Below are positions 571 through 56,179 of a stretch of 64,000 nucleotides of DNA, piece by piece. Under the pieces are notes generated by a model. It searched no databases. It saw only the letters and a program-made list of their open reading frames with translations, and was not told where the DNA came from. Source of the DNA: Terriglobia bacterium (GTDB lineage: Bacteria > Acidobacteriota > Terriglobia > Terriglobales > Acidobacteriaceae); the NCBI GenBank assembly GCA_020072845.1, contig JAIQGF010000013.1:39463-103462 (forward strand). Reading direction: 5' to 3'. Numbering within the stretch: position 1 is the first letter of the stretch; every line of letters begins with the position of its first letter. The position numbers were made by a program, and so were the translations under genes.

Positions 571-600
571 CGGTACTCGGTACTAGGCACTCGGTACTAG
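571..600. repeat. Period-7 tandem repeat (CGGTACT-type)
   Basis: Units CGGTACT, CGGTACT, AGGCACT and CGGTACT follow each other without spacing between two convergent genes. The stop codon of the minus-strand methyltransferase falls inside the second unit. No inverted arm is seen here. Confidence 0.75.
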
Positions 601-1347
601 CTGTCCGTAAAACATCCTCGTTTCCTGTTCCAGCCTCACCACGCCCCCGCCCTGGTACTCGTCAAACAAATTATCAATCGCGCCCAGCATCGGCGGAAAC
701 GACGGATGTCCCCGGTGCGGCATGTACGACGCCGAGAGAATTCTGCCCGTCAGGCAGTGGCGGTCCAGGGTCTGCGGGTTGTCGAACACTGCCTTTTGAA
801 ACCCTGCCTTGCCAAAGAATTCGGGCAGCGAGTTCTTGCTCCACAGCGGCTTCACCTTGTGGTAATCAACGCCGAAGCGCACCAGGAGCTGCTCGTATGC
901 GGTCATGAACGGAGTGGCATCCGTGCGGCGCTCGTTCCACAGCAGCACCACCCACCCGCCCGGCTTCAGGATGCGGGCGAACTCGCGGTGCGCTTCCCGC
1001 GGCTCGAACCAGTGAAAGGATTGCGCCGCGGTCACCAAGTCCACCAACCCCGATTTCAGCGTGGTCGCTTCCGCGCGGCCGAGCACGGCGACAAAATGGG
1101 CGCAGTCGCGCAGCGATTTGCGCGCGGCATCCAGCATGGACGCATTCGGCTCGACCCCGAACACGCGATTCCCGGCGTCGCACAACAGGCGCGACAAGAT
1201 GCCGGTACCGCAGCCGACGTCGGCAATCACCGACTCCGCTGTCAGCCCACATTCCCGGCGCATGGTTTCCAGCACCTGCGGCGGGTACCCGGGCCGATAC
1301 CGGGCGTAATCTTGCACGCGATTCGAGAAGCGACGAGTTGGATCCAT
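583..1347 (-). CDS. Class I SAM-dependent methyltransferase
   Basis: The predicted protein has 254 residues. The SAM-binding Rossmann motif I (VIADVGCGTGILSRLL) is near residue 40, an acidic motif (VFGVEPN) about 20 residues later, and the post-motif segment AAQSFHWFEPREAHREFARILKPGG is typical of UbiE/YcgJ-like methyltransferases. The start was placed at the ATG opening MDPTRRFSNRVQDYARYRPGYP, because that stretch is the conserved family N-terminus; an in-frame ATG 25 codons upstream adds only low-complexity residues. The methyl acceptor is unknown. The last residues and the stop codon lie in a period-7 repeat, so the C-terminus has probably been remodelled. Confidence 0.85.
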   Translation of the reverse strand: MDPTRRFSNRVQDYARYRPGYPPQVLETMRRECGLTAESVIADVGCGTGILSRLLCDAGNRVFGVEPNASMLDAARKSLRDCAHFVAVLGRAEATTLKSGLVDLVTAAQSFHWFEPREAHREFARILKPGGWVVLLWNERRTDATPFMTAYEQLLVRFGVDYHKVKPLWSKNSLPEFFGKAGFQKAVFDNPQTLDRHCLTGRILSASYMPHRGHPSFPPMLGAIDNLFDEYQGGGVVRLEQETRMFYGQLVPSA

Positions 1348-1433
1348 GCTTGAATGTGGCGCGGGCGCCCTCGCCCGCGATCCTCTTCGATGACGCGATG
1401 CTTGCGCATTCGCGCCCAGCACCGCATTATTGC

Positions 1434-1526
1434 AGTTTCAAGGCTCAGTTTCGAGTTACTGCCGGAGTGCGGCTCCGGTGCTCGCCCTGCGACTCCGCTG
1501 AAACCGAAACTGAAACTGAAACTCTC
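1434..1526. repeat. Inverted pair of AGTTTC/GAAACT tandem units
   Basis: The left arm (1434-1460) holds AGTTTC twice plus a partial copy. The right arm (1500-1526) holds GAAACC, GAAACT, GAAACT, GAAACT in a row. The arms are complementary and enclose about 40 bases, so a hairpin is possible. The right arm ends one base before the ATG at 1528 and leaves no room for a ribosome binding site. Confidence 0.65.
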
Positions 1527-1527
1527 A

Positions 1528-2142
1528 ATGCCAAACAACTCGCATCTTCAATTCTCTCCCGCGGAGCTGCGCAAGGTCCGCTCGCTGAGGACTCCTTACG
1601 GAGTCCAGAAATTTCTCGATTCCCTTCCGTACCACCTGGAAGACACCTCGTGGTCGCCGCGCAAAGTGCTGCACCACGGGACCGCGCATTGTTTGGAAGG
1701 CGCGATTTTCGGGGCGGCGGCGCTCCGGGTGCTCGGGTTTCCCCCGCTTCTGTGGGACCTGGAGGCCGACTACGACACCGATCACGTGCTGGCCATCTTC
1801 AAGGTCCGCGGCCACTGGGGTGCGGTAGCGAAGTCGAATTGGTCGGGCTGCCGCTATCGCGAGCCGGTCCATCGCTCCCTGCGCGAACTTGCCCTCACTT
1901 ACTTTAACCTTTACTGCAATCGCCGCAAGCAGCGTACCCTGCGCCGATACTCGCGTCCGGTCAACCTGGCGCGTTTTGATCACCTCAACTGGATGATCGC
2001 GGAAAAGGACCCCTGGTTCATTGCCGAGTACCTATGTGAGATACCGCACATTCCATTGCTGAAGCCTTTGCACGTGAAGCGGCTCTGCCCGGTGGATGAT
2101 CGCCTGTTTCGCGCCGAATTGACCGATCATCGGTGGAAATGA
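1528..2142 (+). CDS. Transglutaminase-like cysteine-protease-fold protein, function unknown
   Basis: This 204-residue protein carries a Cys in HCLEGAIFGAAALR (near residue 55), a His in DTDHVLAIF and a following aromatic-rich strand HWGAVAKSN. The spacing fits the Cys-His core of the transglutaminase/NlpC-like fold, where the Cys opens a helix and the His sits on a strand. There is no signal peptide or membrane segment. The start ATG was chosen where the conserved part begins (MPNNSHLQFSPAELRK). Upstream in-frame codons cross a repeat and are not convincing. Fold assignment is inference; no substrate can be proposed. Confidence 0.65.
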   Translation: MPNNSHLQFSPAELRKVRSLRTPYGVQKFLDSLPYHLEDTSWSPRKVLHHGTAHCLEGAIFGAAALRVLGFPPLLWDLEADYDTDHVLAIFKVRGHWGAVAKSNWSGCRYREPVHRSLRELALTYFNLYCNRRKQRTLRRYSRPVNLARFDHLNWMIAEKDPWFIAEYLCEIPHIPLLKPLHVKRLCPVDDRLFRAELTDHRWK

Positions 2143-2156
2143 CACCGTTTTGCGGC

Positions 2157-2235
2157 CTGAGTGAGCCCTGAGCGTAGCGGAGGGGCGAGCGGGAGACCGC
2201 AGGCGTTATCCTGAGCGAAGCGAAGGATCTCTTTT
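2157..2235. repeat. Dispersed repeat, CCTGAGCGAAGCGAAGGA type
   Basis: Two related segments occur: CCTGAGCGTAGCGGAGG near 2167 and CCTGAGCGAAGCGAAGGA near 2211. A similar block is seen at about 59565-59610. The AAGGA inside the last copy lies about 10 bases before the MutS-like start and may act as its ribosome binding site. Confidence 0.55.
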
Positions 2236-2238
2236 CGC

Positions 2239-4029
2239 ATGACCGCGCCCACACCAGCTTCCGAGTACACGCGTCGGGCCGAAGCCCGCGCCGCGGACGC
2301 CGCGCGCCTGGACCGCCGCTCCGTCTGGCTCGGCAACTTGAAACTGGCCGCGGTGATCGTGTTCTTCGTCGCCGGCGCCTTCTACGTCAAGCAGCACGCC
2401 TTCTCGCCCTACTGGCTGCTCATCCCGGTCATCGCATTTTTGGCGCTGGCCGTGGTTCACGACCGCGTGATCAACGCCCGGCATGCCGCTGAAAAGGCTG
2501 CCGAGTTCTATCGCCGCGGAATCGCGCGCATTGAGGACCGGGGCGAAGGCGACACCGGCGAGCAGTTCCGGGTTGCGGACCACGTTTACGCCGACGATCT
2601 CGACCTCTTCGGCAAGGGCAGCGTTTTCGAACTGCTGTGCTGCGCCAGAACTCCGATGGGCCGGCAGACGCTGGCGCGCTGGCTGCTCGCCCCGGCGCCG
2701 GTGGATGAAGTCCGCGAGCGGCAGCAGGCGATTGACGAACTCCGCTCCCGCCTCGATCTCCGCGAAGACCTCGCTATCACCGGGGACGATCTGCGCTCGC
2801 CGCGCCAGCCCGACTGGCTGGTCGAATGGGCGGAATCACCCGTTGTCCTGAAAAACCCGGCGCTCCGCGTCCTCTCCTCCCTGGTGGCGCTCGCCGCCGT
2901 TGCCGCGCTCGTCTATCGCGGCCTCGGCGGTGATTGGATCCCGCTGCTGGTGATCATCGGCGCAGCTTCTCTCATCGCCTCCAGGCTGCGCGACCGCGTG
3001 CACTCGCTGCTGGACGCCATCAGCGCCGCCGCCGATGAACTCGCGCTGGTTTCCGCGCTATTGGCGCGCATCGAGCGCGAGCCGTTCACCGCCGCCTGGC
3101 TGCGCGCCCGTGCCGCCGGCCTGGAATCCACCGCTGCGACTCCGTCGCGCAGTCTGGCGCGCCTGCGCTATCTCGCCGATCTCGCCAACGGCAGCCACAA
3201 CTTGTTCGTGAAGTTGATTGACGTGCCGCTGCTGTATTCGGTGCAGGCCGCCTTCGCGGCCGAGTCATGGCGCCGCCAGCACGGCCATTCGGTGCGGCAG
3301 TGGCTGGACGCGCTCGGCGACCTGGAAGCGCTGGTCTCTTTGTCGGCGTACGCGTTTGAGCACCCCGACGACCCCTTCCCCGAATTTCTGCCGGAGCGCG
3401 TGCCCGCCATCTTCGACGCCGAACGGATGGGACATCCGCTCCTGCCCGCCGCGCACTGCGTTCGCAATAGCGTGCGCCTCGGCGACCCCGCGCAACTGCT
3501 TTTGGTCAGCGGCTCGAATATGAGCGGCAAGAGCACGCTGCTGCGCGCCATCGGCGTGAACGTGATGCTGGCGCAGGCGGGCGCGCCGGTTCGTGCCGCG
3601 CGCCTGGCCATGTCACCGGTGCGGCTGGGGACCTCAATCCGTGTCACCGACTCGCTCCAGGCCGGCCGCTCCGGCTTTTACGCTGAAATCGTGCGCCTGC
3701 GCCAGGTCATGTCGCTCACCGACGGCGGCCAGCCCGTGCTCTTCCTGCTCGACGAACTGCTGCACGGAACCAACTCGTACGACCGGAAAATCGGCGCTGA
3801 AGGCATCGTGCGCGCGCTGCTGGAGCGCGCCGCCATCGGGATCGTCACCACCCACGATCTCGCGCTGACCGCGATCGGCACGACCGCCGTGGACGGCCGC
3901 GTCCGCAACGCGCATTTCGAAGATCACGTCGAAGACGGCGCCATGCGCTTCGACTACCGGCTGCGTGACGGCGTGGTCACCAAGAGCAACGCCCTGGAAC
4001 TGATGCGCAGCATCGGACTGGACGTCTGA
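2239..4029 (+). CDS. Membrane-anchored MutS-family ATPase
   Basis: The protein has 596 residues. Two hydrophobic segments lie near residues 33-75 (LAAVIVFFVAGAFYV, then WLLIPVIAFLALAVV), and a further hydrophobic pair near 215-250. The middle is helical (MutS core/lever-like). The C-terminal third is a MutS ATPase: Walker A GSNMSGKST near residue 425, Walker B LFLLDELLHGTNS around Asp505, and the H-loop TTHD near 540. The mismatch-recognition domain I with its Phe-x-Glu motif is absent, so this is not the classical repair MutS. Such membrane MutS-like proteins are known but uncharacterised. It is followed by uvrB on the same strand about 100 bases on. Confidence 0.85.
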   Translation: MTAPTPASEYTRRAEARAADAARLDRRSVWLGNLKLAAVIVFFVAGAFYVKQHAFSPYWLLIPVIAFLALAVVHDRVINARHAAEKAAEFYRRGIARIEDRGEGDTGEQFRVADHVYADDLDLFGKGSVFELLCCARTPMGRQTLARWLLAPAPVDEVRERQQAIDELRSRLDLREDLAITGDDLRSPRQPDWLVEWAESPVVLKNPALRVLSSLVALAAVAALVYRGLGGDWIPLLVIIGAASLIASRLRDRVHSLLDAISAAADELALVSALLARIEREPFTAAWLRARAAGLESTAATPSRSLARLRYLADLANGSHNLFVKLIDVPLLYSVQAAFAAESWRRQHGHSVRQWLDALGDLEALVSLSAYAFEHPDDPFPEFLPERVPAIFDAERMGHPLLPAAHCVRNSVRLGDPAQLLLVSGSNMSGKSTLLRAIGVNVMLAQAGAPVRAARLAMSPVRLGTSIRVTDSLQAGRSGFYAEIVRLRQVMSLTDGGQPVLFLLDELLHGTNSYDRKIGAEGIVRALLERAAIGIVTTHDLALTAIGTTAVDGRVRNAHFEDHVEDGAMRFDYRLRDGVVTKSNALELMRSIGLDV

Positions 4030-4106
4030 GCGCCGCGATATAATCAAGAGATGCTCACCGGCCAATACTCAGCTCTGTGGCGACAGCGTTCAGTCGGCCT
4101 CGGGTA

Positions 4107-4127
4107 CTAATTGCTAATCGCTAATTG
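4107..4127. repeat. Period-7 repeat directly before uvrB
   Basis: Three units, CTAATTG, CTAATCG and CTAATTG, end five bases before the uvrB ATG. They fill the place where a Shine-Dalgarno sequence would be. Confidence 0.7.
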
Positions 4128-4132
4128 CTTCC

Positions 4133-6124: not shown

Positions 6125-6130
6125 ACAGGT

Positions 6131-6202
6131 CTAGCCACAGAGGACACCGAGGAAAACCAAGGTCAAAACGCCTTCCTTGATGTTCCTGACCTTTGTGGCT
6201 AG
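6131..6202. repeat. Inverted repeat with period-9 units between convergent genes
   Basis: CTAGCCACAGAGG (6131-6143) pairs with CCTTTGTGGCTAG (6190-6202) with one mismatch. The left arm continues as CACAGAGGA, CACCGAGGA, AAACCAAGG, a period of about 9. It sits between uvrB and the convergent MCP gene and could serve as a bidirectional terminator, though it has no long T run. Confidence 0.65.
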
Positions 6203-6240
6203 GTGTTCTTACTAGCGTCCGCGGGCTTGATCGCGCGGAA

Positions 6241-20562: not shown

Positions 20563-20631
20563 GGTCGTAAGTCGTTGGTCGTTAGTCGTTCGCAGGTTGG
20601 TTTTGCCCAACGACCAGTGGCCAACGGCCAA
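20563..20631. repeat. Inverted period-7 repeat between cheB and cheY
   Basis: The left arm has GGTCGTA, AGTCGTT, GGTCGTT, AGTCGTT. The right arm has AACGACC, AGTGGCC, AACGGCC. The arms are complementary around a short loop. The block lies inside the che operon and ends just before the GGGAGG ribosome binding site of cheY, so any hairpin would be in the mRNA. Confidence 0.75.
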
Positions 20632-20643
20632 GGGAGGTGGGTC

Positions 20644-21569: not shown

Positions 21570-21670
21570 CACGGATTTCCGCGGATCGGCACGGATAAAA
21601 CAAAATCCGTGTGCATCCGCGCAAATCTGTGGCCCGTTTTTCCTCTGCGATCCTCTGCGCACTCTGTGGT
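21570..21670. repeat. Inverted period-10 repeat after the che operon
   Basis: The left arm has CACGGATTTC, CGCGGATCGG, CACGGATAAA. The right arm has AATCCGTGTG, CATCCGCGCA, AATCTGTGGC. A third set, TCCTCTGCGA, TCCTCTGCGC, ACTCTGTGGT, follows with the same period. It sits between the che operon and a convergent gene and may help end transcription. Confidence 0.75.
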
Positions 21671-21680: not shown

Positions 21681-22145
21681 TCACGAGCGCGCCAGCTCTT
21701 CGCGCGCGATCTTCTCCGCCTCCGTCTTCAGCGCTTCCAGCCAATCCTTGTGCATCGCCACCAGCGATTGCTTCATGCCGCTACCGAACAACGCCGCCAC
21801 CAATCCCGAAATGTCTTCCCAGGTCTTGATCAGCGTGGTCCCATCGGGCTGCGCCTCGAAGCTGAACCAGTGCTCGCCGGTAAAGCCGGTCGTCTTGCCC
21901 ACCCAACCGATCCGGTTCGGCGGAAGCGCTTCGATGATGGTGGGCCGGAAAGAAATTCTTCGCGGATACACCAGGTCCATCAGGAACTGGCTTCCCTTTT
22001 CCCACGGCTTTCCGCTCAGCCACTTTGCCCGCCCGACCACGCGGTTCCACCACGGCCACTCTTCCAGCTTGTGGAACTTCTGCCACACGTGTTCCGGCTT
22101 GCACTTCGCCGTGACGGAGTATTCCAGCCTGGTCGCCATCCTCAC
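21681..22145 (-). CDS. SRPBCC (START/polyketide cyclase-like) family protein
   Basis: The 154-residue protein has the helix-grip pattern: an opening strand RLEYSVTAKCKPEHVWQKFHKLEEWPWWN, the middle strands and the long C-terminal amphipathic helix (GMKQSLVAMHKDWLEALKTEAEK). The family binds hydrophobic ligands in a deep cavity or acts as a cyclase/aromatase. No catalytic residue is evident. There is no signal peptide. It stands alone between two repeat loci. Confidence 0.8.
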   Translation of the reverse strand: MRMATRLEYSVTAKCKPEHVWQKFHKLEEWPWWNRVVGRAKWLSGKPWEKGSQFLMDLVYPRRISFRPTIIEALPPNRIGWVGKTTGFTGEHWFSFEAQPDGTTLIKTWEDISGLVAALFGSGMKQSLVAMHKDWLEALKTEAEKIAREELARS

Positions 22146-22152: not shown

Positions 22153-22246
22153 TAATTTGTAATTTGTAATTGGTAATTTGCAGTGTCAAGGAGCTGCTGC
22201 CGGCGGAAGTTCAAATTGCAAATTACAAATTACCAATTACAAATCC
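22153..22246. repeat. Inverted period-7 repeat, TAATTTG/CAAATTA type
   Basis: The left arm has TAATTTG, TAATTTG, TAATTGG, TAATTTG. The right arm has CAAATTG, CAAATTA, CAAATTA, CCAATTA, CAAATCC. The arms flank a GC-rich loop of 31 bases. This is the clearest example of the class and is very AT-rich in a GC-rich genome. Confidence 0.85.
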
Positions 22247-23734: not shown

Positions 23735-23945
23735 AGAGGGCCGCCCCAGCGGGGCGGATGAAAATAGCCCAGCACTTCAGTGCTGGGAAGAAGCACGAAG
23801 TTTGTCCGCAAGTCCCGTAGGGACGACTGAATGGAACTGGACAGCACTCCTGCGGATGAACTCAATCGTCCCTACGGGACTCCGATCGTTGTGGCAACCA
23901 GACCCGGCGCTGAAGCGCCGGGCTATTTTCATCCGCCGCTGCGCG
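23735..23945. repeat. REP-like palindrome cluster
   Basis: A mosaic of perfect short palindromes: CCGCCCC/GGGGCGG (23741-23757), CCCAGCACTTCAGTGCTGGG (23769-23788), GTCCCGTAGGGAC (near 23812), the same core inverted (near 23869), and CCCGGCGCTGAAGCGCCGGG (23903-23922), each with ATAGCCC/GGGCTAT or GGATGAAAAT edges. Related clusters occur near 41.9, 46.8 and 59.8 kb. The last bases are also the end of hemW. Confidence 0.75.
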
Positions 23946-25317
23946 GCTCGAGGGACCGAGCGATCGATTGACCGATAGACCGAACCACCAGGAATTTCTG
24001 GAACACTTCATTCGACAGCAAGCGCCCGCGCGACGTCAGCCGTGTCGCCCCCTCACAGATCTCAACCAGGCCCAACTCACGCAGTTCCGCGATCTGCTCG
24101 CGAAAAACCGTCGCCGCCTCCGGCCCGTAGCGCTCCGCCAACTCGCGCGCCTGCAGGCCGCGATTTAATCGCAGCCCGAGGAAATACGCCTCTTCCAGCG
24201 CCGCCGGATAAGTCACCGGAGTACGCTCGTGCGGCTTGCCGGCCAGGTACGCGTCCAGCGAATCCGGCGTGGCCAGCCGCATCGACTCCACTCCCATGCG
24301 AGCGTAGAAATTGGAATCCTCCGACTCGCGCGCGCCACCGAAGTTCGGCGCGTGCTCCAGGTAGTCGCTGATCTCACGCTCCATCGCGGCGCGCGCCTGC
24401 CGCGAATCCGCCGCCAGCATGGAATGTGCGTCCACTCCGAAGCCGAGATACGGTTGCCGCGTCCAGTACTTCAGGTTGTGGCGCGACGAATACATCGGGA
24501 GATCCGGTGATCGGGTGATCGGGTGCTCGGCTGCGCCGGCGTGCAGGTTGCGGGCAAAATTTGAGATCTCGTACTGAACAATCCCCGCCGCGTTCAGCCG
24601 TTCGCACGCTTGCAGATAATAGTCGGCGGTCGCGTCGTCATCGGGGACAAAGTGCGCGTGGTACCGCGTGCCGCCGGCGATCAGCTCCCGTCCGAGGCGC
24701 GAGTCCTCGTCCACCTCCAGCATGTACACGCTGACGTGCGGCACGCCGGAAGCAATCGTCTCCGCCAGGGAAAACTCCCAGCTCTCAGGTGTCTGGTGCG
24801 GCAATCCGGCAATCAGGTCAATGCTGATGTTGGTGATTCCGGTGGCGCGCAGCCGCGCCAGGTCGTCGAGCACGATGGCGCGCGTGTGCAGCCGCCCCAC
24901 GCTCGCCGCCTCCTCATCCACGAACGACTGCACGCCCAGGCTGACGCGGTTCACGCCGCAGCGCCCCAGCGACTCCAACATCGGCGGCGTCAGCGTGCCG
25001 GGAGCGCACTCCACCGTGATCTCGGCATCGCCACGCACGCGAAATTTCGCGCGTACCGCCGCAAAAATCCGTTCCAGCTCCGCCGCCTCGAGCACCGTGG
25101 GCGTTCCGCCGCCGAGGTAAATGGCATCCACCTCGCGCTCGAACTTCGCGCCCATCTCCGCCGCCAGCCGGTCCGACGACTCGATATCCGCCGACACCCG
25201 CTCCACGTAGCGGGCAAAGACCGAGCGCGCGACGACGCCCGAGGCGAAGTTGCAAAAGCTGCACTTGGTCCGGCAGAACGGAACCGAGATGTAGATACCC
25301 AGAGACACAGATCTCAT
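23929..25317 (-). CDS. hemW: Radical SAM protein HemW-like (heme chaperone; coproporphyrinogen oxidase family)
   Basis: The predicted protein has 462 residues. The N-terminal radical SAM motif is YISVPFCRTKCSFCNF (three Cys of the CxxxCxxC cluster), then YLGGGTPT, VECAPGTLT, GVNRVSLGVQSF and SIDLIAGLPHQT, matching HemW, which binds heme and a 4Fe-4S cluster. The C-terminal HemN domain ends at TSRGRLLSNEVFQKFL. Two oddities: an extra stretch around EHPITRSPD before SRHNLKYW is encoded by a period-8 repeat, and the last 18 residues come from another repeat plus a palindrome. The ATG start was preferred over a TTG six codons upstream. Confidence 0.9.
   Translation of the reverse strand: MRSVSLGIYISVPFCRTKCSFCNFASGVVARSVFARYVERVSADIESSDRLAAEMGAKFEREVDAIYLGGGTPTVLEAAELERIFAAVRAKFRVRGDAEITVECAPGTLTPPMLESLGRCGVNRVSLGVQSFVDEEAASVGRLHTRAIVLDDLARLRATGITNISIDLIAGLPHQTPESWEFSLAETIASGVPHVSVYMLEVDEDSRLGRELIAGGTRYHAHFVPDDDATADYYLQACERLNAAGIVQYEISNFARNLHAGAAEHPITRSPDLPMYSSRHNLKYWTRQPYLGFGVDAHSMLAADSRQARAAMEREISDYLEHAPNFGGARESEDSNFYARMGVESMRLATPDSLDAYLAGKPHERTPVTYPAALEEAYFLGLRLNRGLQARELAERYGPEAATVFREQIAELRELGLVEICEGATRLTSRGRLLSNEVFQKFLVVRSIGQSIARSLEPRSGG
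23952..23983. repeat. Period-8 repeat inside the 3' end of hemW
   Basis: Units GACCGAGC, GATCGATT, GACCGATA and GACCGAAC lie in tandem and encode the non-conserved C-terminal tail of HemW. The unit resembles those at 43.5 and 56.1 kb. Confidence 0.65.
24501..24532. repeat. Period-8 repeat within hemW coding sequence
   Basis: Units GATCCGGT, GATCGGGT, GATCGGGT and GCTCGGCT lie in the middle of hemW and keep the frame. They encode part of an insertion (EHPITRSPD) not expected in the family. Confidence 0.65.
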
Positions 25318-35826: not shown

Positions 35827-36993
35827 ATGCGACTGCTGATCTCGGCCGGGGAAGCCTCCGGCGAAAGCTACGGCGCGCTGCTCATCGCCGCCCTGAAACA
35901 ACGTGAGCCATCGCTGGACTGCTTCGGCGTTGGCGGCGAACGCATGCGCGACGCCGGCTGCCGCCTGGTCGTGGACGCCAAGGACATCGCAGTGGTCGGC
36001 CTGGCTGAAGTCGTCACCCGCCTGCCGAAAATCCGGGGCGAATTCCGCAAACTGCTGCGCGCGGTGGATTCCGGCAAACCCGACGCCGCCGTGCTCATTG
36101 ACTTTCCCGACTGGAACCTCCGCCTGGCACGCCAGCTTCACCGGCGCGGCATTCCCGTCATCTACTATGTCAGCCCGCAGCTCTGGGCGTGGCGGCCGAA
36201 GCGCATCGCGCAGATCAAGCGCCATGTGCGCAAGATGCTGGTCATCTTCCCCTTCGAAGAGGCGTGGTATCGCGAGCGCGGCGTCGAAGCGGAGTACGTC
36301 GGACATCCACTCGCTGATCTGCCCGCGCCGGGACCTGCTCCGCCACTTCGCTCCCCGCAGATTCCCATCGCTGTGCTGCCCGGAAGCCGCAAGAAGGAAA
36401 TCACGCTTAACCTTCCTGCCATGCTGCAGGCGGCGCGCACGCTCGGCCGCAAGTACCAGTTCATCATTCCGGTCGCCTCCACCGTCAGTTCGAAGTGGAT
36501 GGTGGACCTGATTCACCGCGCGGTTGGCCAGGACCCCGGCATCAATCTGAAACTGGAAAGCGACGCGCGAGTGGTGCTCTCGCAGGCCCGCGCCGCGATG
36601 GTCGCCAGTGGAACCGCCACGGTGGAGGCCGCGCTGATTGGCACGCCCTTCGTGATGGTCTATCGCGTTTCGCGGCTCACCTGGAAGCTCGGCCGCCCGC
36701 TGGTGAGTGTCCCCTTCTTCGCCATGCCCAACCTGATCGCCGGACGCGAGGTTGTGCCCGAGCTGGTGCAGGACAATTTCACTCCCGAAAACATTGTGGC
36801 CCGCATGAACGAGATTATTGCCGACGGCCCGGCGCGGCAGTCCATGCTGGAGGGATTGAAGGAGGTGCGCGCGAGACTCGCCGCGCCGTCAGGCGCCGGC
36901 AGCGCCTCAGATCGCGCCGCCGCAACGGTGTTTGAGGCTCTAGGCTCTAGGCTTCAGGCTTCAGGCTTCAGGCTTCACGTCCGTTCTTCCTAA
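35827..36993 (+). CDS. lpxB: Lipid-A-disaccharide synthase
   Basis: LpxB joins UDP-2,3-diacylglucosamine to lipid X in the inner-membrane stage of lipid A synthesis. The 388-residue protein has LISAGEASGESYGA at the start, VLIDFPDWNLRLA, YYVSPQLWAWRPKRI, the Glu/Gly-rich VGHPLAD, LPGSRKKEI and ASGTATVEAALIGTPFVMVYR, all hallmarks of the GT19 family. The final 19 residues (EALGSRLQASGFRLHVRSS) are encoded by a period-7 repeat and the stop lies in its inverted arm, so the tail is not original. It shows a Gram-negative outer membrane. Confidence 0.96.
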   Translation: MRLLISAGEASGESYGALLIAALKQREPSLDCFGVGGERMRDAGCRLVVDAKDIAVVGLAEVVTRLPKIRGEFRKLLRAVDSGKPDAAVLIDFPDWNLRLARQLHRRGIPVIYYVSPQLWAWRPKRIAQIKRHVRKMLVIFPFEEAWYRERGVEAEYVGHPLADLPAPGPAPPLRSPQIPIAVLPGSRKKEITLNLPAMLQAARTLGRKYQFIIPVASTVSSKWMVDLIHRAVGQDPGINLKLESDARVVLSQARAAMVASGTATVEAALIGTPFVMVYRVSRLTWKLGRPLVSVPFFAMPNLIAGREVVPELVQDNFTPENIVARMNEIIADGPARQSMLEGLKEVRARLAAPSGAGSASDRAAATVFEALGSRLQASGFRLHVRSS

Positions 36994-37018
36994 CGCCTAA
37001 GGCCCAACGCCCAAAACC
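36935..37018. repeat. Inverted period-7 repeat at the end of lpxB, AGGCTTC type
   Basis: The left arm has AGGCTCT twice and AGGCTTC four times. The right arm has TAACGCC, TAAGGCC, CAACGCC, CAAAACC. The left arm encodes the LpxB tail and the first TAA of the right arm is its stop. Confidence 0.8.
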
Positions 37019-38460: not shown

Positions 38461-40533
38461 ATGCACCACGCACCACGGCCCCTAGGGCGCATCCTTATCT
38501 TTCTGGTGAGCGTTGCGGCGCTGGCTCTGCCCGCCGCGGCCGCCGAAAGACCGCGCCTCCGGGTTGACGATTACCAGATCCAAGCCGAGCTTCAGCCCAA
38601 GACCCACCGCCTGGTCGCGCACACGCGGGTGAAGTTCACCGCGCTGGAAGATATCAGCGTCGCCAGCTTCGAGCTGCATAACGCGCTGCGCCCGACGCGC
38701 ATCACCGACGCCGAAGGTCACACCCTCTCCGCCGAGCGCATCACCCAGGACAATGCCATCCGCATCGCGCTGCCCAGCGGTTTGTCGAAAGACGCCAGCA
38801 CGACGCTCGATATCGATTACGAGGGCACCCTCTCGTCCGCCGATGACAGCCCCGTGCAAGGCCTGAAGCTGGCTTACGTCGGCGACGACACCAGCTACTT
38901 GCTTTATGCCGGACGCTGGTTCCCGATGAGCGGCTATGGCACCAATCGTTTTACCGCCAGCATGAAGATCACCGTGCCCGCGGGCTGGACGGTGATCGGC
39001 AGCGGCGCGCAGGGTGCCGCCACCACTGAGCCTGCGCGTCCGGTGAAGGGACCTCTGCCGACGCGCGCTCGCGGCCGTGCCGCGCCCAAGCCCGAGCCGG
39101 AATCCGCTGTGCCCGCCACCTCCGGTGGCAAGACCTTCACCTTCGAGTGGACCAAGCCCAGTTTCCCTGGAACCATCATTGCCGGAAACTTCCAGCAGAG
39201 CAGCAGCAACGCGGTTGGATTGAACCTGCACGTCTTCTTCAAGCCGGTGCACAAGGACCTGGTGTCCAACTACACCGAAACCGCGGTGCGCGAGTTCCAG
39301 TTCTACACGGCGCGCCTTGGACCGCCGTTGTCCAACAGTCTGAACATCGTGGAAATGCCGGACGACACGGTGCCCACCGCCTGGGCGCCGGAAATCGCCG
39401 CCATGGCCTCGCGCGCGCTTACGGGAAAGGTGAATTACCGGCTGCTGGCGAACGCCATCGCGCACCAGTGGTGGGGCGCCGACGTCAGCCCCGCGACGCG
39501 CAGTGACTGGTGGCTGGGCGACGGCTTCGCGCGCTATTCCGAGGCGCGCTATGTCGAGTCCGCCGCCGGCCAGGCCGCATTCACCGAAGCCGTGAAGGAC
39601 ATGGAAGTCGGCGCGCTGGCCTACGACACCGTGCCGCTGTCCAGCGTGGCACGGTTGGACCCGTTCGCGCCGGAATTCCAGGCGCTGGTCACCGACAAGG
39701 GCGCCATCATCCTCAACATGCTGCGCTGGGTGATGGGCGACGCCGCCTTCGACAAGACGGTGCGCACTTTCCTGCAGCAGTACACGGGCAAGCCCGCCAC
39801 GGTAGACGATTTCCGCAAGATCGCGGAGCAGATCCATGGCGACAACCTCACCTGGTTCTTTTCGCAGTGGATCGATTCCACCGGCGCTCCCGAATTCAAG
39901 ACCAAGTACACGGTGTACCGCGTAGCCAAGGGCTTCCGCACCGTCGGCGAGATCTCGCAAGACCTGGACCTGTTCCGCATGCCGGTCGAACTGAAGATCG
40001 ACACCGACGGCCAGAGCGAGTCCAAGCGCATCGAAGTGGTGGGCACGAATTCCGCCTTCCAGGTGGAGACCTTCGGCAAGCCGCGGCGCATCACGATTGA
40101 CCCCGACAACCGCGTGCTCAAGAACTCGCAGGAGCTGAAGGTGCGCGCCTCCATCATGCGCGGCCAGGGAATGGTGGAGCAGGGCGACCTCGCCGCCGCG
40201 CTGCAGGAATTCCAGAGATCGCTGGACGCCAACAAGCACAGCTCGCTGGCGCATTACCGCATCGCCGAAGTTTTTTTCCTACAGAAGAACTACCAGGCGG
40301 CGGCCAATGCCTACCGCGAGGCGCTCAACGGGGATGGAGAACCGCGCTGGACCGAGGTCTGGAGCCACATCCAGCTGGGCAAGATTTTCGACGTCACCGG
40401 CCAGCGCGAGCGCGCCACCAACGAATATCGCCAGGCACTGCAAACCAACGACAATACCCAGGGCGCGATGAATGAAGCGCGCAAGTATCTTTCGGCGCCG
40501 TATCAGAGGAAAGAATCGAAAGAGGGGGAGTAG
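38461..40533 (+). CDS. M1-peptidase homologue, predicted inactive, with C-terminal TPRs
   Basis: The 690-residue protein has a signal peptide (1-29), an N-terminal beta domain and an M1-like gluzincin domain. The zinc motif HExxH reads N331-A332-I-A-H335, and the third ligand Glu, 19 residues after the last His, is Asp354 (WLGDGFARYSE). Two of the three zinc ligands and the general base are thus changed, so peptidase activity is unlikely. Residues from about 570 on are TPR repeats (GMVEQGDLAAALQEFQRSL and following). It may act as a periplasmic binding or scaffold protein. GGAG lies eight bases before the ATG. Confidence 0.85.
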   Translation: MHHAPRPLGRILIFLVSVAALALPAAAAERPRLRVDDYQIQAELQPKTHRLVAHTRVKFTALEDISVASFELHNALRPTRITDAEGHTLSAERITQDNAIRIALPSGLSKDASTTLDIDYEGTLSSADDSPVQGLKLAYVGDDTSYLLYAGRWFPMSGYGTNRFTASMKITVPAGWTVIGSGAQGAATTEPARPVKGPLPTRARGRAAPKPEPESAVPATSGGKTFTFEWTKPSFPGTIIAGNFQQSSSNAVGLNLHVFFKPVHKDLVSNYTETAVREFQFYTARLGPPLSNSLNIVEMPDDTVPTAWAPEIAAMASRALTGKVNYRLLANAIAHQWWGADVSPATRSDWWLGDGFARYSEARYVESAAGQAAFTEAVKDMEVGALAYDTVPLSSVARLDPFAPEFQALVTDKGAIILNMLRWVMGDAAFDKTVRTFLQQYTGKPATVDDFRKIAEQIHGDNLTWFFSQWIDSTGAPEFKTKYTVYRVAKGFRTVGEISQDLDLFRMPVELKIDTDGQSESKRIEVVGTNSAFQVETFGKPRRITIDPDNRVLKNSQELKVRASIMRGQGMVEQGDLAAALQEFQRSLDANKHSSLAHYRIAEVFFLQKNYQAAANAYREALNGDGEPRWTEVWSHIQLGKIFDVTGQRERATNEYRQALQTNDNTQGAMNEARKYLSAPYQRKESKEGE

Positions 40534-40548
40534 GCTTTAGGCTTTAGG
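40533..40548. repeat. Left fragment of the AGGCTTC-type period-7 array
   Basis: Two units of AGGCTTT abut the stop of the M1-like gene; the array is interrupted here by an insertion sequence and continues at 41598. Confidence 0.7.
40543..40548. repeat. Target-site duplication (left copy), TTTAGG
   Basis: TTTAGG directly precedes the left end of the insertion sequence and is repeated at 41598-41603 directly after the right end. Confidence 0.75.
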
Positions 40549-41494
40549 TGTGGTGTCTCAAGACGTTGTTCCCCTCCAAGCCGGAGCGGCTGATGGGTGG
40601 CGACTGGCCAAGACTAGCATGCGGGCGGTGCCAGTTGTACTGGTGGAGCCAGGGCTCCAGCTCCGCGCTACGTTCGGTTGAGTTGTGATAGAGACGGGCG
40701 TAGGCCCATTCGCGCAGCGCAGTCTGGATGAAGCGCTCGGCTTTGCCGTTGGTGCGCGGGGTATAGGGGCGGGTGAAACGGTGTCGGATGCCGAGTTGAC
40801 GGCAGGCGGCGGCCAGCAGGCGGGAGTGATAGCAGGGGGCGTTGTCGGTGAGCAGGCGGCGGATGCGGATGCCGAAGCGTGCATAGTAGGCGACGGCGGC
40901 ACGGAGGAAGGCGGCGGTGGAGTCGGCGCGCTCGTCGGCATAGAGTTGGGTGAAAGCGATGCGGGAGTGATCGTCGATGGCGACATGCAGGATCTCCCAG
41001 CCGGCACCGCGAGTTTCGTCACGCGGATCGCCGGTGACACGGTGACCCGGCTTGGTAAAGCGGGCCAGTTTCTTGGTGTCCAGGTGAAGCAGGTCGCCGG
41101 GATGTGGGTGTTCATAGCGGCACACGGGCACGACGGGGTCCAGGTCGCGCATGCGGTTGAGATGGTGGCGGCGCAGGATGCGGCTGATGGTGGCGCGGCT
41201 CAGGCCGGTGGTCTGCGCGATGTGCACGCCGGTCCAACGCTGTCGCCGCAGCACGAGGACCTGGTTCACGAGGTCGGCTCCGGTCTGGCGCGGTGAACGC
41301 TGCGGACGCGAGGAACCGTCGTAAAGGCCGGCACGGCCCTGACCACGATAGCGGAGCACCCACTTACGAGCGGTTTTGGTGCTGACGTGGAACGCGGCGG
41401 CCGCCGCGTTCCACGTCGCCTTCTCGTCAATGATCTTTTTGGCTAAAGCCTCTCGACTGCGGAGTGTAAGTCGGGCATTCTGGTGCAGGTCCAT
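40544..41494 (-). CDS. IS481-family transposase
   Basis: The 316-residue protein has an N-terminal helix-turn-helix (NAAAAAFHVSTKTARKWVLRY) and an integrase-fold core with DDE residues in LLHLDTKKLARF (Asp), RLLTDNAPCYHS (Asp) and RTNGKAERFIQT (Glu), then the C-terminal WHRPHASLGQ pattern. It is complete and probably active. The TAA stop, and part of the last codon, lie in the duplicated target DNA outside the element, so the end of the protein depends on where it inserts. The next-best label would be an rve-domain transposase of another IS3-related group. Confidence 0.92.
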   Translation of the reverse strand: MDLHQNARLTLRSREALAKKIIDEKATWNAAAAAFHVSTKTARKWVLRYRGQGRAGLYDGSSRPQRSPRQTGADLVNQVLVLRRQRWTGVHIAQTTGLSRATISRILRRHHLNRMRDLDPVVPVCRYEHPHPGDLLHLDTKKLARFTKPGHRVTGDPRDETRGAGWEILHVAIDDHSRIAFTQLYADERADSTAAFLRAAVAYYARFGIRIRRLLTDNAPCYHSRLLAAACRQLGIRHRFTRPYTPRTNGKAERFIQTALREWAYARLYHNSTERSAELEPWLHQYNWHRPHASLGQSPPISRSGLEGNNVLRHHT

Positions 41495-41597
41495 TCGGCC
41501 TTCTCCTTGGAAAGCGGATTGGTCAGCACCACCAGCTTCTCCGGTCTTGGTCGAATGGACTATTACCTGTTAGGGAACAACGTCCTGAAACTTCACA
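40549..41597. mobile_element. IS481-type insertion sequence, 1049 bp
   Basis: The imperfect terminal repeats start TGTGGTGTCTCAAGACGTTG on the left and, read inward from the right, TGTGAAGTTTCAGGACGTTG; 21 of 25 bases match and both continue TTCCC. A 6-bp target duplication TTTAGG flanks it. It carries one transposase gene. It landed within a period-7 tandem array, so the array is older than the insertion. Confidence 0.9.
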
Positions 41598-41886
41598 TTT
41601 AGGCTTTAGGCTTCTGGCTTCTGGCTTCTGGCTTCAGGATTCAGGCTTCAGCATTCAGGCTTCAGGCTTCAGCATTCAGGCTTCAGGCTTCTGGCTTCAG
41701 GCTTCAGGCTTCAGGCCCCAGGCTCCAGGCTTCAGGCTCCAGGCTCCAGGCTTCAGGCTCCAGGCTCCAGGCTTCAGGATTCAGGATTCAGGATTCAGGC
41801 TCCAGGATTCAGGATTCAGGCTCCAGGATTCAGGATTAAGGATTACTGGCTTTAAGATTACTGGCTTCTTACAGGCCTCAGGATTA
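41598..41886. repeat. Long period-7 array (about 36 units) of AGGCTTC type
   Basis: Units AGGCTTC, AGGCTCC, AGGATTC, TGGCTTC and AGCATTC follow each other with an unbroken period of 7 for about 240 bases and then degrade. A higher-order AGGCTTC/AGGCTCC/AGGCTCC pattern repeats three times in the middle. There are no spacers, so it is not a CRISPR. It shares its unit with loci at 36.9 and 46.6 kb. Confidence 0.9.
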
Positions 41887-41981
41887 GCCGCGAAGCGGCG
41901 CATGACAATAGCCCGGCACTTCAGTGCCGGGTTGATGCGCGACGACGATTTGAGTGCCGTAGGCACGACTGAAACTAGAAA
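41887..41981. repeat. REP-like palindrome cluster
   Basis: CCGCGAAGCGG, CCCGGCACTTCAGTGCCGGG and GTGCCGTAGGCAC occur in order, with ATAG before the large palindrome, as in the other clusters. Confidence 0.7.
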
Positions 41982-43456: not shown

Positions 43457-43475
43457 GATTGAATTGTACCGTGAT

Positions 43476-43560
43476 GGTCTGTCGGTCTATCGGTCCGTCG
43501 GTCTGTCCCCGGTCTGGGGTTTTTCACCGGCAGACCGAAAGACTGATAGACCGAGAGACC
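43476..43560. repeat. Inverted period-8 repeat, GGTCTATC/GATAGACC type
   Basis: The left arm has GGTCTGTC, GGTCTATC, GGTCCGTC, GGTCTGTC. The loop holds CCCCGGTCTGGGG. The right arm has GGCAGACC, GAAAGACT, GATAGACC, GAGAGACC. It separates two divergent genes, so it lies in both leader regions. The same unit type returns at 56.1 kb. Confidence 0.85.
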
Positions 43561-43603
43561 GCGCGATTAAAATAAATAGTTCGTCCTTCATGCAGGAGCC
43601 CTT

Positions 43604-46522: not shown

Positions 46523-46634
46523 AAGTGGGTCCTCTTTCTGCGCTGAATTGATAATTGCATTGCCCGCGGCAGATGGCGCCGCGGACGCTTGAGCAAACGA
46601 CTATTGTCTGCTGCGCGGGGCAGTTTAGTAAAGC

Positions 46635-46686
46635 AGGCTTCAGGCGTTGGGCTTCAGGCTCCAGGCTTCAGGTTGCAGGTTTGAGG
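46635..46686. repeat. Degenerate AGGCTTC-type repeat
   Basis: AGGCTTC, then GGGCTTC, AGGCTCC, AGGCTTC and AGGTTGC follow with a period of 7 except one slip. Same unit as the loci at 36.9 and 41.6 kb. Confidence 0.65.
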
Positions 46687-46711
46687 GTGCAGCGTCTAGG
46701 CTGACGCGTGT

Positions 46712-46985
46712 AGAACCTCAGTCGTGCCTACGGCACTCACCGGTTTGTTCCACTTTCCCGCCGCTGAAGCGGCGGGCTATTGTCAATCGCCCCGCTGGGG
46801 CTCTTCACATTCAGCTCACGGGGACTGTTCATTTTGCGCCGCGGGCCCTGCATGATGTTCAGCCCTGCTGAGATGGGTGAAGTTTCTTCAGCCCCGAAGG
46901 GGCGAATCATAATAGCCCGGCGCTTTAGCGCCGGGAACGCTGTGACAAATTGCCAGAGTCCCGTAGGGACGGCACGGGCATAATA
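46712..46985. repeat. REP-like palindrome cluster
   Basis: Contains GTGCCTACGGCAC, CCCGCCGCTGAAGCGGCGGG followed by CTATTGTCA, GCCCCGCTGGGGC, AGCCCCGAAGGGGCG, ATAGCCCGGCGCTTTAGCGC with its partner, and GTCCCGTAGGGAC just before the hemerythrin gene. It fills the gap of over 400 bases between two genes. Confidence 0.7.
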
Positions 46986-46990
46986 GATAC

Positions 46991-50209: not shown

Positions 50210-50211
50210 CC

Positions 50212-50242
50212 AATCACAAATCATCAATCGCAAATCACAAAT
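50212..50242. repeat. Period-7 repeat, AATCACA type
   Basis: Units AATCACA, AATCATC, AATCGCA and AATCACA lie between the last gene of the ECF sigma operon and its terminator. Confidence 0.7.
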
Positions 50243-50244
50243 GC

Positions 50245-52042: not shown

Positions 52043-52053
52043 GGCTCATCTCC

Positions 52054-53471: not shown

Positions 53472-54070
53472 CAGGTCACCTGCCTATAAGTACGTGATAG
53501 CAGCCGTCCAAGTTCCGTCCGTCCCCGATTTATGCGCGACTTCACCGTTCCCTCCGGTACCTTCAGGGCTAAGGCGATTTCCCGGTAGTCCATGTCCTGC
53601 AGGTCACGGAGGATCACCGCCTCCCGCAGCTCGGGGGAGAGCTTCTGGAGCGCTTTTTGCACCATTTCCTGGGTTTCGCGGCTCCGGAGGCGGGCATCGG
53701 GCGAAGGACCGGAGTCCTCCAGCCGCGCCGCCACACTGATGGAATCCTCCTCGGCTGTGATCCCCTCGTCCATCGAGTCGGTCACCCGGTCCTGCTTGCT
53801 CTTGCGAAAATGGTCCACCAGCAGGTTCCGGGTCAGGGTGGCCACCCAGGTCATAAACGATCCCTTATCGGTATCGTAGGTTTTCAGGGTGCGGTAAATC
53901 TTGATGAAGACCTCTTGGGCGAGGTCCTGGGCGTCGTCCTGCGAGCCCGTAAACCTATAACAAATGTTGAAGATACGCCGATTGAAGCGCTCGACAATCT
54001 CCTCCCAGGCAACCGCGTCGCCGGCTACGCAGCGACGGACCAGAGAGGCCACGACTTGATTGTCGTCCAA
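53471..54070 (-). CDS. ECF-type RNA polymerase sigma factor
   Basis: The 199-residue protein has region 2 (FNRRIFNICYRFTGSQDDAQDLAQEVFIKIYRTL with the core-binding and -10 recognition helices) and region 4 (LRDLQDMDYREIALALKVPEGTVKSRINRGRTELG, the -35 helix-turn-helix). There is no region 3, as expected for group 4. The TTG start is set by GAGGAG six bases ahead. It heads a five-gene operon with its anti-sigma factor and three membrane proteins, suggesting control of an envelope response and of its own operon. The promoter was not recognised. Confidence 0.93.
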   Translation of the reverse strand: MDDNQVVASLVRRCVAGDAVAWEEIVERFNRRIFNICYRFTGSQDDAQDLAQEVFIKIYRTLKTYDTDKGSFMTWVATLTRNLLVDHFRKSKQDRVTDSMDEGITAEEDSISVAARLEDSGPSPDARLRSRETQEMVQKALQKLSPELREAVILRDLQDMDYREIALALKVPEGTVKSRINRGRTELGRLLSRTYRQVT

Positions 54071-54115
54071 CCAGCACTCCTCGGGAACTCCTGGTCACAC
54101 TGCCCCTGGGGATGA

Positions 54116-54256
54116 ATACGGCCCGATTGACCAGAATGTTCCGTCGGGTAACTCTGAGGAAACAATGGATTTTAGCAGGTTATGTGAGGTTGCCCCACCC
54201 CTTGCCGCTCCCGGTGGAGCCTGCGCTGAGCGCAGTTGAAGGGGATTTTGGTGAAG
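54116..54256. other. Intergenic region between sigma operon and glgC
   Basis: No gene seen. It should contain the sigma operon promoter on the minus strand, but no clear ECF or sigma-70 motif was found. A short CTGCGCTGAGCGCAGTTGAAGG element of the dispersed GAGCG class lies near 54220-54240. Confidence 0.35.
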
Positions 54257-54305
54257 GCTGATAGCTGAAAGCTGGAAGCTGATCGCTGACAGCTGATCGC
54301 TATTC
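54257..54305. repeat. Period-7 repeat at the 3' end of glgC, GCTGATC type
   Basis: Seven units: GCTGATA, GCTGAAA, GCTGGAA, GCTGATC, GCTGACA, GCTGATC, GCTATTC. The glgC stop codon is inside the last unit. Confidence 0.8.
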
Positions 54306-55550: not shown

Positions 55551-55624
55551 CGCATCGTTCCCGGATCGGTGGTAGTTGCTCGCGGTCAGGAAGCCCAAGC
55601 GAGCATTCGATGGTAGCACAAGGA

Positions 55625-55652
55625 ATCGGATGATCGGGTGATCGGATGATCT
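55625..55652. repeat. Period-8 repeat, ATCGGGTG type
   Basis: Units ATCGGATG, ATCGGGTG and ATCGGATG upstream of glgC and of a divergent gene. The same unit type occurs inside hemW. Confidence 0.65.
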
Positions 55653-55750
55653 GCATGCCCGCCGCCTGGCGCCGGCAGCTTGCCGCCTGTTCCTCCACGT
55701 CACACGGTTTTGTGATTTATGACCAAGCTCCTGGGTTATGCGCTGCTAGA

Positions 55751-56092
55751 ATGGAGCCCGTGCTAGGCCTTTCCACCGCCCGCAAGCTGGGAATTTTCGG
55801 TCGCGTCGCGGCGCGCCAGGCGGGCCAGAGCCGATGGTTGCGCGCCGGCTACTCCGCCCTCCAGATCACCCTCCGGCACTTCGGGCGCGTCGTCCACCTG
55901 CTTTGGCTGGAGATCACGGGAGTGTTTTTCTTGTTCTTTGCCCTGGTAGGCGGCGTGGCCTGTTGGCGCGAGTACCTGAAATGGCAGGCCGGCAAGATCG
56001 GCCCCGGCAAAATGGTCCTGGCCGCCGGCTTTGCCCTGGTGTTCTTGTGGTTTGGTGTGAGTTCGTTCTGGCGCGTGAAGCGGAAAGCCTGA
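55751..56092 (+). CDS. Hypothetical membrane protein
   Basis: The 113-residue protein has an amphipathic Arg/Gly-rich N-terminus and two hydrophobic helices (VHLLWLEITGVFFLFFALVGG near 48-68 and MVLAAGFALVFLWFGVSSFW near 86-105) with a basic C-terminus. I do not recognise the family. The start at MEPVLGLS is a guess; no good ribosome binding site is present, and codons further upstream are not convincing. It ends just before a period-8 repeat. Confidence 0.55.
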   Translation: MEPVLGLSTARKLGIFGRVAARQAGQSRWLRAGYSALQITLRHFGRVVHLLWLEITGVFFLFFALVGGVACWREYLKWQAGKIGPGKMVLAAGFALVFLWFGVSSFWRVKRKA

Positions 56093-56093
56093 A

Positions 56094-56179
56094 AGTCTCT
56101 CGGTCTATCAGTCTATCGGTCACTCATTGCCGATCGACCTAAACACTGATCGACCGACAGACCGAAAGACCGATAGACG
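56094..56179. repeat. Inverted period-8 repeat before the mutase gene, GGTCTATC/GATAGACC type
   Basis: The left arm has AGTCTCTC, GGTCTATC, AGTCTATC, GGTCACTC. The right arm has GATCGACC, TAAACACT, GATCGACC, GACAGACC, GAAAGACC, GATAGACG. It ends 3 bases before the GGAGG ribosome binding site region of the mutase gene. Confidence 0.85.

What the first reader, a model, noticed from the sequence alone, without database searches (positions are those of the whole stretch)
571..56179. Intergenic hairpin repeats with a shared architecture but different unit sequence
At least 17 loci carry 3-7 tandem degenerate units of 7, 8 or 10 bp (one about 9), often as two inverted arms: 571, 1434, 4107, 6131, 20563, 21570, 22153, 23952, 24501, 36935, 40533/41598, 43476, 46635, 50212, 54257, 55625 and 56094. 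Units fall into families (AGGCTTC; GGTCTATC/GATAGACC; ATCGGGTG; TAATTTG; GGTCGTT; GCTGATC; CACGGATTTC), yet period and arm layout are kept. Normal slippage would not give inverted arms each time with a new unit. A dedicated process, such as templated repeat synthesis or hairpin-primed copying, is conceivable. I know of no named family that fits, but it may exist.
Basis: partly seen in the sequence, partly recalled or inferred. Interest (0 to 1): 0.85.

Follow-up and report, generated by a model that had tools for sequence, protein, structure and literature searches.

The report
Inverted short-repeat scars between genes
About 30 percent of the gaps between genes sampled in this acidobacterium carry short repeats of 6 to 8 letters, often as two inverted arms, and the repeated word differs from gap to gap and is often exchanged or missing in close relatives, likely because both sides of a healed DNA break are each extended with the same short word.

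Summary
In 863 kb of this genome, 180 of 593 intergenic gaps carry arrays of period 6-8, mostly 7; shuffles give almost none. 172 of 425 arrays have an inverted partner of the same unit, against 31 of 421 by chance. The strand leading into the loop is G/T-rich in 40 pairs and reversed in 1; 28 are not polar. There are about 66 unit families, with shares that differ between sister species. In 127 distinct orthologous comparisons the unit is kept (39), another array unit is found (21) or none (67). Units have a constant core plus one or two freer positions. In inherited arrays core sites differ at 7.5% and free sites at 23%, mainly in unpaired arrays. The arms are not copies of one another, so hairpin-primed copying is rejected for 7-8 bp arrays. 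RT genes are not required but array-bearing genomes have them more often; Ku and Y1 show no clear link. Rehm 2015 describes the same layout with one unit type in Xanthomonas, so this is a new, many-unit variant of a known kind. The best mechanism, one degenerate repeat added to both 3' ends of a gene-end break, is inferred (about 0.3).

The parts
569..598 (+). 7-bp array (CTCGGTA / CTAGGCA), single, after a stop codon
1434..1523 (.). inverted 6-bp arms (CAGTTT ... AAACTG); right arm kept in G002 and G003
4107..4129 (+). 7-bp array CTAATTG just before the start of a uvrB-like gene
6131..6203 (.). imperfect hairpin with loose 8-10 nt words; weakest member
   Evidence: z -5.4; no TRF row
20563..20632 (.). 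inverted arms GGTCGTT ... AACGACC; G001 has AAGAAGT arms here, G002 no array
21570..21634 (.). hairpin with 10-bp words (CACGGATTTC type)
   Evidence: z -8.2
22153..22180 (.). left arm TAATTTG; G001 has GTCGGGA-type arms and G002 TTCATTC-type arms in this gap
22212..22244 (.). right arm CAAATTA
23954..23983 (+). 8-bp array GACCGATA near the end of the hemN-like gene
24494..24530 (+). 8-bp array GATCNGGT inside the hemN-like coding sequence; shared with G001 and G002, absent in G003
36935..36977 (+). 7-bp array AGGCTTC
36989..37014 (-). likely partner arm CCTAACGCCTAAGGCCCAACGCCC (weak pairing, fold z -1.5)
40531..40548 (+). AGGCTTT array, part before the IS481-type element
41598..41845 (+). 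AGGCTTC array of about 33 copies, part after the IS481-type element
43476..43507 (.). left arm GGTCNNTC between divergent genes
   Evidence: z -8.2
43532..43561 (.). right arm GACCGANN
46633..46692 (+). 7-bp array CAGGCTT, shared with G001
50210..50242 (+). 7-bp array CCAATCA
54252..54301 (+). 7-bp array AGCTGAN
55625..55651 (+). 8-bp array ATCGGATG, similar array in G001 and G002
56095..56121 (.). left arm GGTCNNTC
56152..56178 (.). right arm GACCGANN; core shared with G001 while NN differs in several units

Best explanation
Each locus is one short-unit array or an inverted pair of arrays, in polar pairs with the G/T-rich strand running inward from the gene edge, likely made when both 3' ends of a break near a gene end are each extended with the same degenerate short repeat and then rejoined over a filler loop. 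Shown: the arrays, their inversion, the polarity, the shared unit in both arms, the non-mirrored order of variants, the constant core with freer positions, and presence, absence or exchange between sister species. Inferred: that a break starts it, that synthesis at both 3' ends makes the arms, and that the free positions are already varied at birth. Unknown: the enzyme and the template. About 30% of arrays are found again with the same unit in a sister species; the others are not.
For: Same unit in both arms: 46 of 66 same-period pairs within 2 mismatches, null about 15%. Polarity G/T-left, A/C-right: 29 to 0 in 41 same-unit pairs and 11 to 1 in 28 others, the remaining 28 of 69 not polar. Arms are independent draws: 74 pairs, D 0.001 +- 0.07, against 1.23 expected if mirrored with 10% later divergence. 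Loops are mostly not shared: 37 of 47 hit only themselves in the stretches then held. Arrays without a counterpart are as variable inside as inherited ones (p 0.46), though some of them may be losses in the other species. Ends look ragged (15 alignments); at G001_C65:37346 the array replaces the last codons of a gene and supplies its stop codon. 90 of 261 G000 arrays have a called stop codon inside or within 12 bp, 38 a start codon.
Against: No break was observed and no strain-level pair was available. No enzyme was found: G011 has arrays but no RVT_1 and no Ku match. Conservation of inherited arrays points to selection, which this model does not need, and free positions change less in paired than in single arrays (6 of 49 against 13 of 33, p 0.007), as if the hairpin mattered. 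Empty sites hold the unit slightly more often than chance (mean rank 0.419 in 63, p 0.025; control 0.506), as slippage from a seed or decay to a remnant would give. 38 of 84 nearby array pairs do not share unit and period.
Confidence: 0.3

Rival explanations
1. Ordinary replication slippage of short seeds makes the arrays, and selection then keeps those that work, perhaps as RNA hairpins or binding sites at gene ends, which conserves the core.
For: One-direction count of inherited arrays: core 49 of 657 sites differ (7.5%), free 19 of 82 (23.2%), p 4e-5; third codon positions 32-39%. Free positions are slower in paired arrays. RNA fold z of -4.5 to -8.2 in five of the seven window loci I chose, -2.2 and -1.5 in the others. 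Gaps with strong inverted stems are rarely divergent: 6 of 73 against 122 of all 593 gaps. A published guess links period 7 to polymerase contact (PMC4692102 discussion).
Against: Slippage alone gives no inverted partner and no fixed polarity. Core conservation is similar without a partner (9.2% and 6.0%, p 0.14). Arrays as such are not depleted between divergent genes in the same degree (32 of 191). Orthologous gaps often hold an unrelated unit or none.
Confidence: 0.3
2. Dispersed mobile elements (MITE-like), each family with its own repeat-built inverted ends.
For: About 66 unit families, many dispersed over several loci, with shares that differ between species; presence and absence at orthologous gaps.
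Against: Loops are mostly unrelated between loci, arm lengths vary, ends look ragged and I saw no target duplication in 15 alignments. Y1 counts do not follow density significantly.
Confidence: 0.2
3. Hairpin-primed (fold-back) copying: one arm is made by copying the other.
For: Inverted arms with the same unit; the 10-bp hairpin at 21570 does look mirrored by eye.
Against: Order of variant units is not mirrored in 74 informative pairs with three or more units of 7-8 bp per arm.
Confidence: 0.07
4. A reverse transcriptase adds template-coded repeats to DNA ends, as DRT10 or telomerase does; this is a special case of the best explanation.
For: Short period, polarity like telomeric strands, template-like constant core. 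Among 19 sampled genomes arrays are denser with RVT_1 (8 of 9 with arrays, mean 13.4 per 100 kb) than without (5 of 10, mean 3.3; p 0.014, or 0.029 with one genome of our genus). G026 has an RT of the UG19 type. Bacterial RTs that make tandem-repeat DNA exist (PMC12632851, abstract and passages).
Against: No RVT_1 in array-bearing G007, G008, G011, G013 and G025. The RTs looked at in G002, G006 and G009 are group II intron maturases, which may just mark genomes rich in mobile DNA. Dozens of unit families would need many templates.
Confidence: 0.12

Closest known systems
GGGAATC / GGGGA(C/T)T heptamer repeats of Xanthomonas and Nostoc (Rehm 2015, PMC4692102; introduction, sections 10 and 14 and discussion read)
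   Same: Heptamer arrays of few units, intergenic, near the upstream gene, 70 and 75 inverted cases, scarce between divergent genes, unit with conserved positions 1-4 and 6.
   Different: [quoted passage not shown] Here about 66 unit families, no G-tract rule, and 39 of 127 comparisons keep the unit.
TAACTGA direct repeats of Beggiatoaceae, cyanobacteria and Bacteroidetes (MacGregor 2015, PMC4679880; abstract and section 10 read)
   Same: Intergenic heptamer arrays, patchy over phyla.
   Different: One heptamer studied; in the main genome 169 direct sets and one indirect, mostly just before start codons.
Tandem heptamers as the most abundant intergenic repeats of prokaryotes (SPADE 2018, PMC6344855; passages read)
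   Same: Same period in intergenic DNA; authors report no clear clue to function.
   Different: A census, without arms, polarity, unit anatomy or comparison of orthologous gaps in the passages I saw.
Cyanobacterial STRR repeats (recalled, Mazel 1990; not read)
   Same: Heptamer tandem repeats, several unit types.
   Different: Inverted pairs with exchange of unit are not part of what I recall.
REP/REPIN elements with RAYT Y1 transposases (recalled)
   Same: Inverted pairs between genes.
   Different: REPs are fixed palindromes of 20-40 bp, not arrays; Y1 counts do not follow these arrays significantly.

Membership tests
Bacterial heptamer SSR / STRR kind | tandem units of about 7 bp, enriched between genes | tested here: met
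   164 period-7 segments against 0.8 shuffled in gaps; 3.4 per equal length of coding sequence
Bacterial heptamer SSR / STRR kind | one or a few unit types per genome | tested here: not met
   66 families in G000-G003, 20 of them singletons and a few GC-rich 6-mers; about 107 exact unit types in the G000 sample
Xanthomonas/Nostoc G-rich heptamers | G-tract unit able to form a quadruplex | tested here: not met
   the five largest families are TTCAGGC, TGGTCGA, GTTGTCG, ATTTGTA and AGTTTC
Xanthomonas/Nostoc G-rich heptamers | inverted pairs in convergent orientation | tested here: met
   172 of 425 arrays with an inverted partner against 31 of 421
MITE | copies share internal sequence and fixed ends | tested here: not met
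   37 of 47 loops hit only themselves in the stretches held
MITE | target-site duplication | tested here: inconclusive
   none seen by eye in 15 alignments, but ends are ragged
REP/REPIN with RAYT | Y1 transposase tracks the repeats | tested here: inconclusive
   Spearman rho 0.35, p 0.14 over 19 genomes; G010 16 matches and G004 8 without arrays in 29 and 40 kb, G025 none with an array
DRT10 / telomerase-like synthesis | reverse transcriptase in every array-bearing genome | tested here: not met
   no RVT_1 match in G007, G008, G011, G013, G025, which carry arrays; association positive all the same; a very divergent RT could be missed
Known structured RNA | match to an Rfam family at the arrays | tested here: not met
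   only Acido-Lenti-1 reaches the gathering score, at other places in the window

The most novel reading that the evidence does not exclude
These genomes heal breaks by adding telomere-like, G/T-leading short repeats with a fixed core and a random position to both ends and then fusing them head to head, so each hairpin is an interstitial telomere-fusion-like scar, and the lineage's current word is written into whichever gap breaks next.
Probability: 0.14. Interest if true: 0.93.

Novelty: new variant of a known kind. Interest (0 to 1): 0.62.

Why it matters
Tandem heptamers are reported as the commonest repeats in intergenic DNA of many prokaryotes, with no clear clue to their function (PMC6344855, passages). 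A genus in which about 30% of sampled gaps carry them in its best-sampled member, with dozens of words and two species about 90% identical, makes their origin testable. The polarity, the non-mirrored arms and the core-plus-free-position anatomy narrow the possible mechanisms.

Tried and rejected
Fold-back copying: a first mirror test had no power, as my own simulation showed. A better one rejects mirrored arms.

Unit morphing in place: units at 'different' orthologous gaps are no more alike than random (34 directed rows, 11 or more of them reciprocal; mean rank 0.434, KS p 0.34). By eye at least 7 of the 34 rows do share a core, for example an 8-mer GTAATTTG against a 7-mer GTAATTT in both arms, so 'different' is an upper count.

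Selection for arm pairing as the only cause: single arrays show similar core conservation. Against this, free positions are slower in paired arrays.

Seed slippage: weak enrichment of the unit in empty sites.

RT, Y1 and Ku as required genes. Ku: 12 of 16 genomes with Ku and 1 of 3 without have arrays.

A common grammar of units: weak (7-mers IC 4.82, shuffled mean 4.08, maximum 4.64 of 20; 8-mers 6.67, 5.14, 5.94).

Hot gaps: G000 and G001 share array presence (15 both, 10 and 5 one only, 13 none of 43 gaps), but leaving out the 7 with same or near unit gives 8, 10, 5, 13, which I do not read as an association. In that call two of three G002 'different' cases are period mis-assignments of the AAACTG array.

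Plasmid search: few weak hits.

Limits of the divergence count: (50 pairs; core 6.3%, free 28.7%) holds some loci twice, in both directions; one search counts one direction (31 arrays; 7.5% and 23.2%) and drops 24 arrays as reverse direction, 7 for families under 15 units and 4 for low identity or gaps. Only recognisable arrays enter, so the core figure is a lower bound. In paired arrays alone the contrast is small (6.0% and 12.2%).
Full report
What is there. The window is part of a 4.23 Mb genome in 27 contigs; its nearest named relatives are Acidobacteria, mostly metagenome-assembled. I fetched 799 kb more of it and called genes with a home-made hexamer method, so gap coordinates are approximate. 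In 593 gaps (137 kb), period 7 gives 164 self-match segments against 0.8 in dinucleotide shuffles, period 8 gives 50 against 0.4, period 6 gives 20 against 0.2, period 10 gives 7 against 0.2; periods 5, 9 and 11 give 0, 4 and 1; coding sequence of equal length gives 3.4 for period 7. Arrays of periods 6-12 number 264, in 191 of 593 gaps; those of period 6-8 number 249, in 180 gaps.

Anatomy. Many gaps hold two inverted arms that nearly reach the genes on both sides, with a loop between. In gaps of 40-350 bp, inverted stems of score 15 or more occur in 59 of 161 array gaps and 14 of 308 other gaps, and in none of the shuffles. In stretches of G000-G003, 172 of 425 arrays have an inverted partner with the same unit within 260 bp, against 31 of 421 with a random unit, and 45 of 425 have a same-orientation neighbour. 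Adjacent pairs are polar: left arm G/T-rich and right arm A/C-rich in 29 of 41 same-unit pairs (0 reversed) and 11 of 28 others (1 reversed), the rest not polar. Arrays lie near called stop codons more than start codons: 90 against 38 of 261 G000 arrays within 12 bp. Of seven window loci that I chose, five fold with z between -4.5 and -8.2, two with -2.2 and -1.5.

The units. Arrays in G000-G003 fall into 66 families at one mismatch, 20 of them singletons and a few GC-rich 6-mers; the families' shares differ between G000, G001 and G002 (chi 73.7 against a permuted mean of 38.7, p 0.0005). Pooled by family, variation sits mostly in one or two columns: in GGTCTATC the A column varies in 50% and the T before it in 27% of 60 units, while five columns vary in 0-2% and the first in 15%; the last base of AGCTGAT varies in 47%; CAGGCTT is more evenly variable. 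Within arrays 49% (paired) and 43% (single) of deviations fall in the family's most variable column.

Relatives. G001, G002 and G003 are of the same genus. G001 and G002 are about 90% identical in 30.5 kb. Of 157 directed comparisons of array loci, 56 keep the unit, 34 have an array of another unit and 67 have none; without reciprocal repeats these are 39, 21 and 67 of 127. The kept share is flat: 8 of 27 at 89% flank identity or more, 11 of 38 at 84-89%, 20 of 62 below. Units classed as different are no more alike than random pairs, though at least 7 of the 34 rows share a core by eye. An example of exchange is the window gap at 22140: TAATTTG arms here, GTCGGGA-type arms in G001, TTCATTC-type arms in G002. 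In the hemN-like gene a stretch with a GATCNGGT array is present in G000, G001 and G002 and absent in G003. At G001_C65:37346 the array has replaced the last codons of a gene and supplies the stop codon.

After insertion. Counted in one direction, 31 inherited arrays differ at 49 of 657 core sites (7.5%) and 19 of 82 free sites (23.2%; p 4e-5). The earlier count with some loci twice gave 68 of 1074 and 43 of 150, near flanks 17.9%, third codon positions 32-39% and second 6-7%. Only recognisable arrays enter, so the core figure is a lower bound. The G000-G003 pair shows no contrast (core 5 of 127, free 1 of 19). Core rates are similar in paired and single arrays (6.0% and 9.2%, p 0.14), but free positions change less in paired ones (6 of 49 against 13 of 33, p 0.007); so the contrast comes mainly from single arrays, and some constraint on the hairpin is possible. 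Arrays without a counterpart are as variable inside as inherited ones.

Arms are not copies. In 74 inverted pairs with at least three units of 7-8 bp per arm the order of variants agrees no better than shuffled order (D 0.001, SE 0.07). Mirrored arms would give 2.03 with no later change, 1.23 at 10% and 0.94 at 15% divergence, and 0.23 at 20%. My earlier version of the test had no power. So one arm was not copied from the other, unless divergence was large or units were reshuffled.

Genes. RVT_1 is found in 10 of 25 genomes, Y1 in 22 of 25, Ku in 20 of 25. Array density in samples of 20-140 kb ranges from 0 (11 of 25 relatives) to about 30 per 100 kb. For the 19 genomes with both, density is higher with RVT_1 (8 of 9 with arrays, mean 13.4) than without (5 of 10, mean 3.3; p 0.014; 0.029 keeping one genome of our genus). 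RTs of G002, G006 and G009 are group II intron maturases, that of G026 is nearest to UG19; those of G000, G001 and G003 are partial matches, in G000 and G003 at contig ends, and were not typed. G011, with six period-7/8 arrays in 40 kb and one inverted pair seen, has neither RVT_1 nor Ku. Y1 counts correlate weakly and not significantly (rho 0.35, p 0.14). None of the three is required by every array-bearing genome sampled. Among 80 named loci, 15 have at least one period-7/8 array. (GTAATTT)-type arrays occur in 7 of 297 genomes of the phylum, G000 included.

Reading. Inverted orientation with one polarity, the same unit in both arms, independent variants, mostly unrelated loops and eroded gene ends fit addition of one degenerate repeat to both 3' ends of a break, followed by joining. 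That is inference; the break, the enzyme and the template were not seen. Slippage plus selection is an equally serious rival, because inherited cores are conserved. I hold 0.3 for each; the RT version (0.12) overlaps with the first.

Known or new. Rehm 2015 (introduction, sections 10, 14 and discussion read) describes the same architecture with one G-rich heptamer, including 70 and 75 inverted cases. [quoted passage not shown] MacGregor 2015 (abstract and section 10) treats TAACTGA. The listings of eight searches of the open library showed me no paper on exchange of unit at orthologous gaps; most subscription papers are not covered. I rate it a new variant of a known kind.

Noticed in passing
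window 40549-41597: An IS481-type element (LZ_Tnp_IS481 and rve domains) sits inside an AGGCTTC array, with TTTAGG on both sides as a probable 6-bp target duplication.
   Followed up: partly
window 23742-23948, 46757-46935, 59711-59893, 41886-41931: Seven Acido-Lenti-1 RNA hits, six of them as three oppositely oriented pairs about 90-115 bp apart, which looks REPIN-like.
   Followed up: no
G001_C65:3477 and its G002 counterpart: A GGTCTATC hairpin gap in G001 (and G000) holds in G002 a different sequence with two GTCCCG..GGGAC-type palindromes, which resembles an Acido-Lenti-1 pair by eye (not run against Rfam).
   Followed up: no
window 21570-21634: A 10-bp-word hairpin (CCACGGATTT type) looks almost perfectly mirrored by eye, unlike the 7-8 bp arrays; it may be a separate class with its own origin.
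   Followed up: no
window 62445-63122: A 297-bp tandem repeat of two copies, about 90% alike.
   Followed up: no
G000 C11:71755 and C11:110453: Arrays with higher-order duplication (units of about 12-70 bp containing AAGACTG/ACGACTG), which looks like ordinary later duplication.
   Followed up: no
L172 (G026), 253-2358, minus strand: A 701-aa reverse transcriptase nearest to the UG19 defence-type RTs in an array-bearing relative.
   Followed up: no
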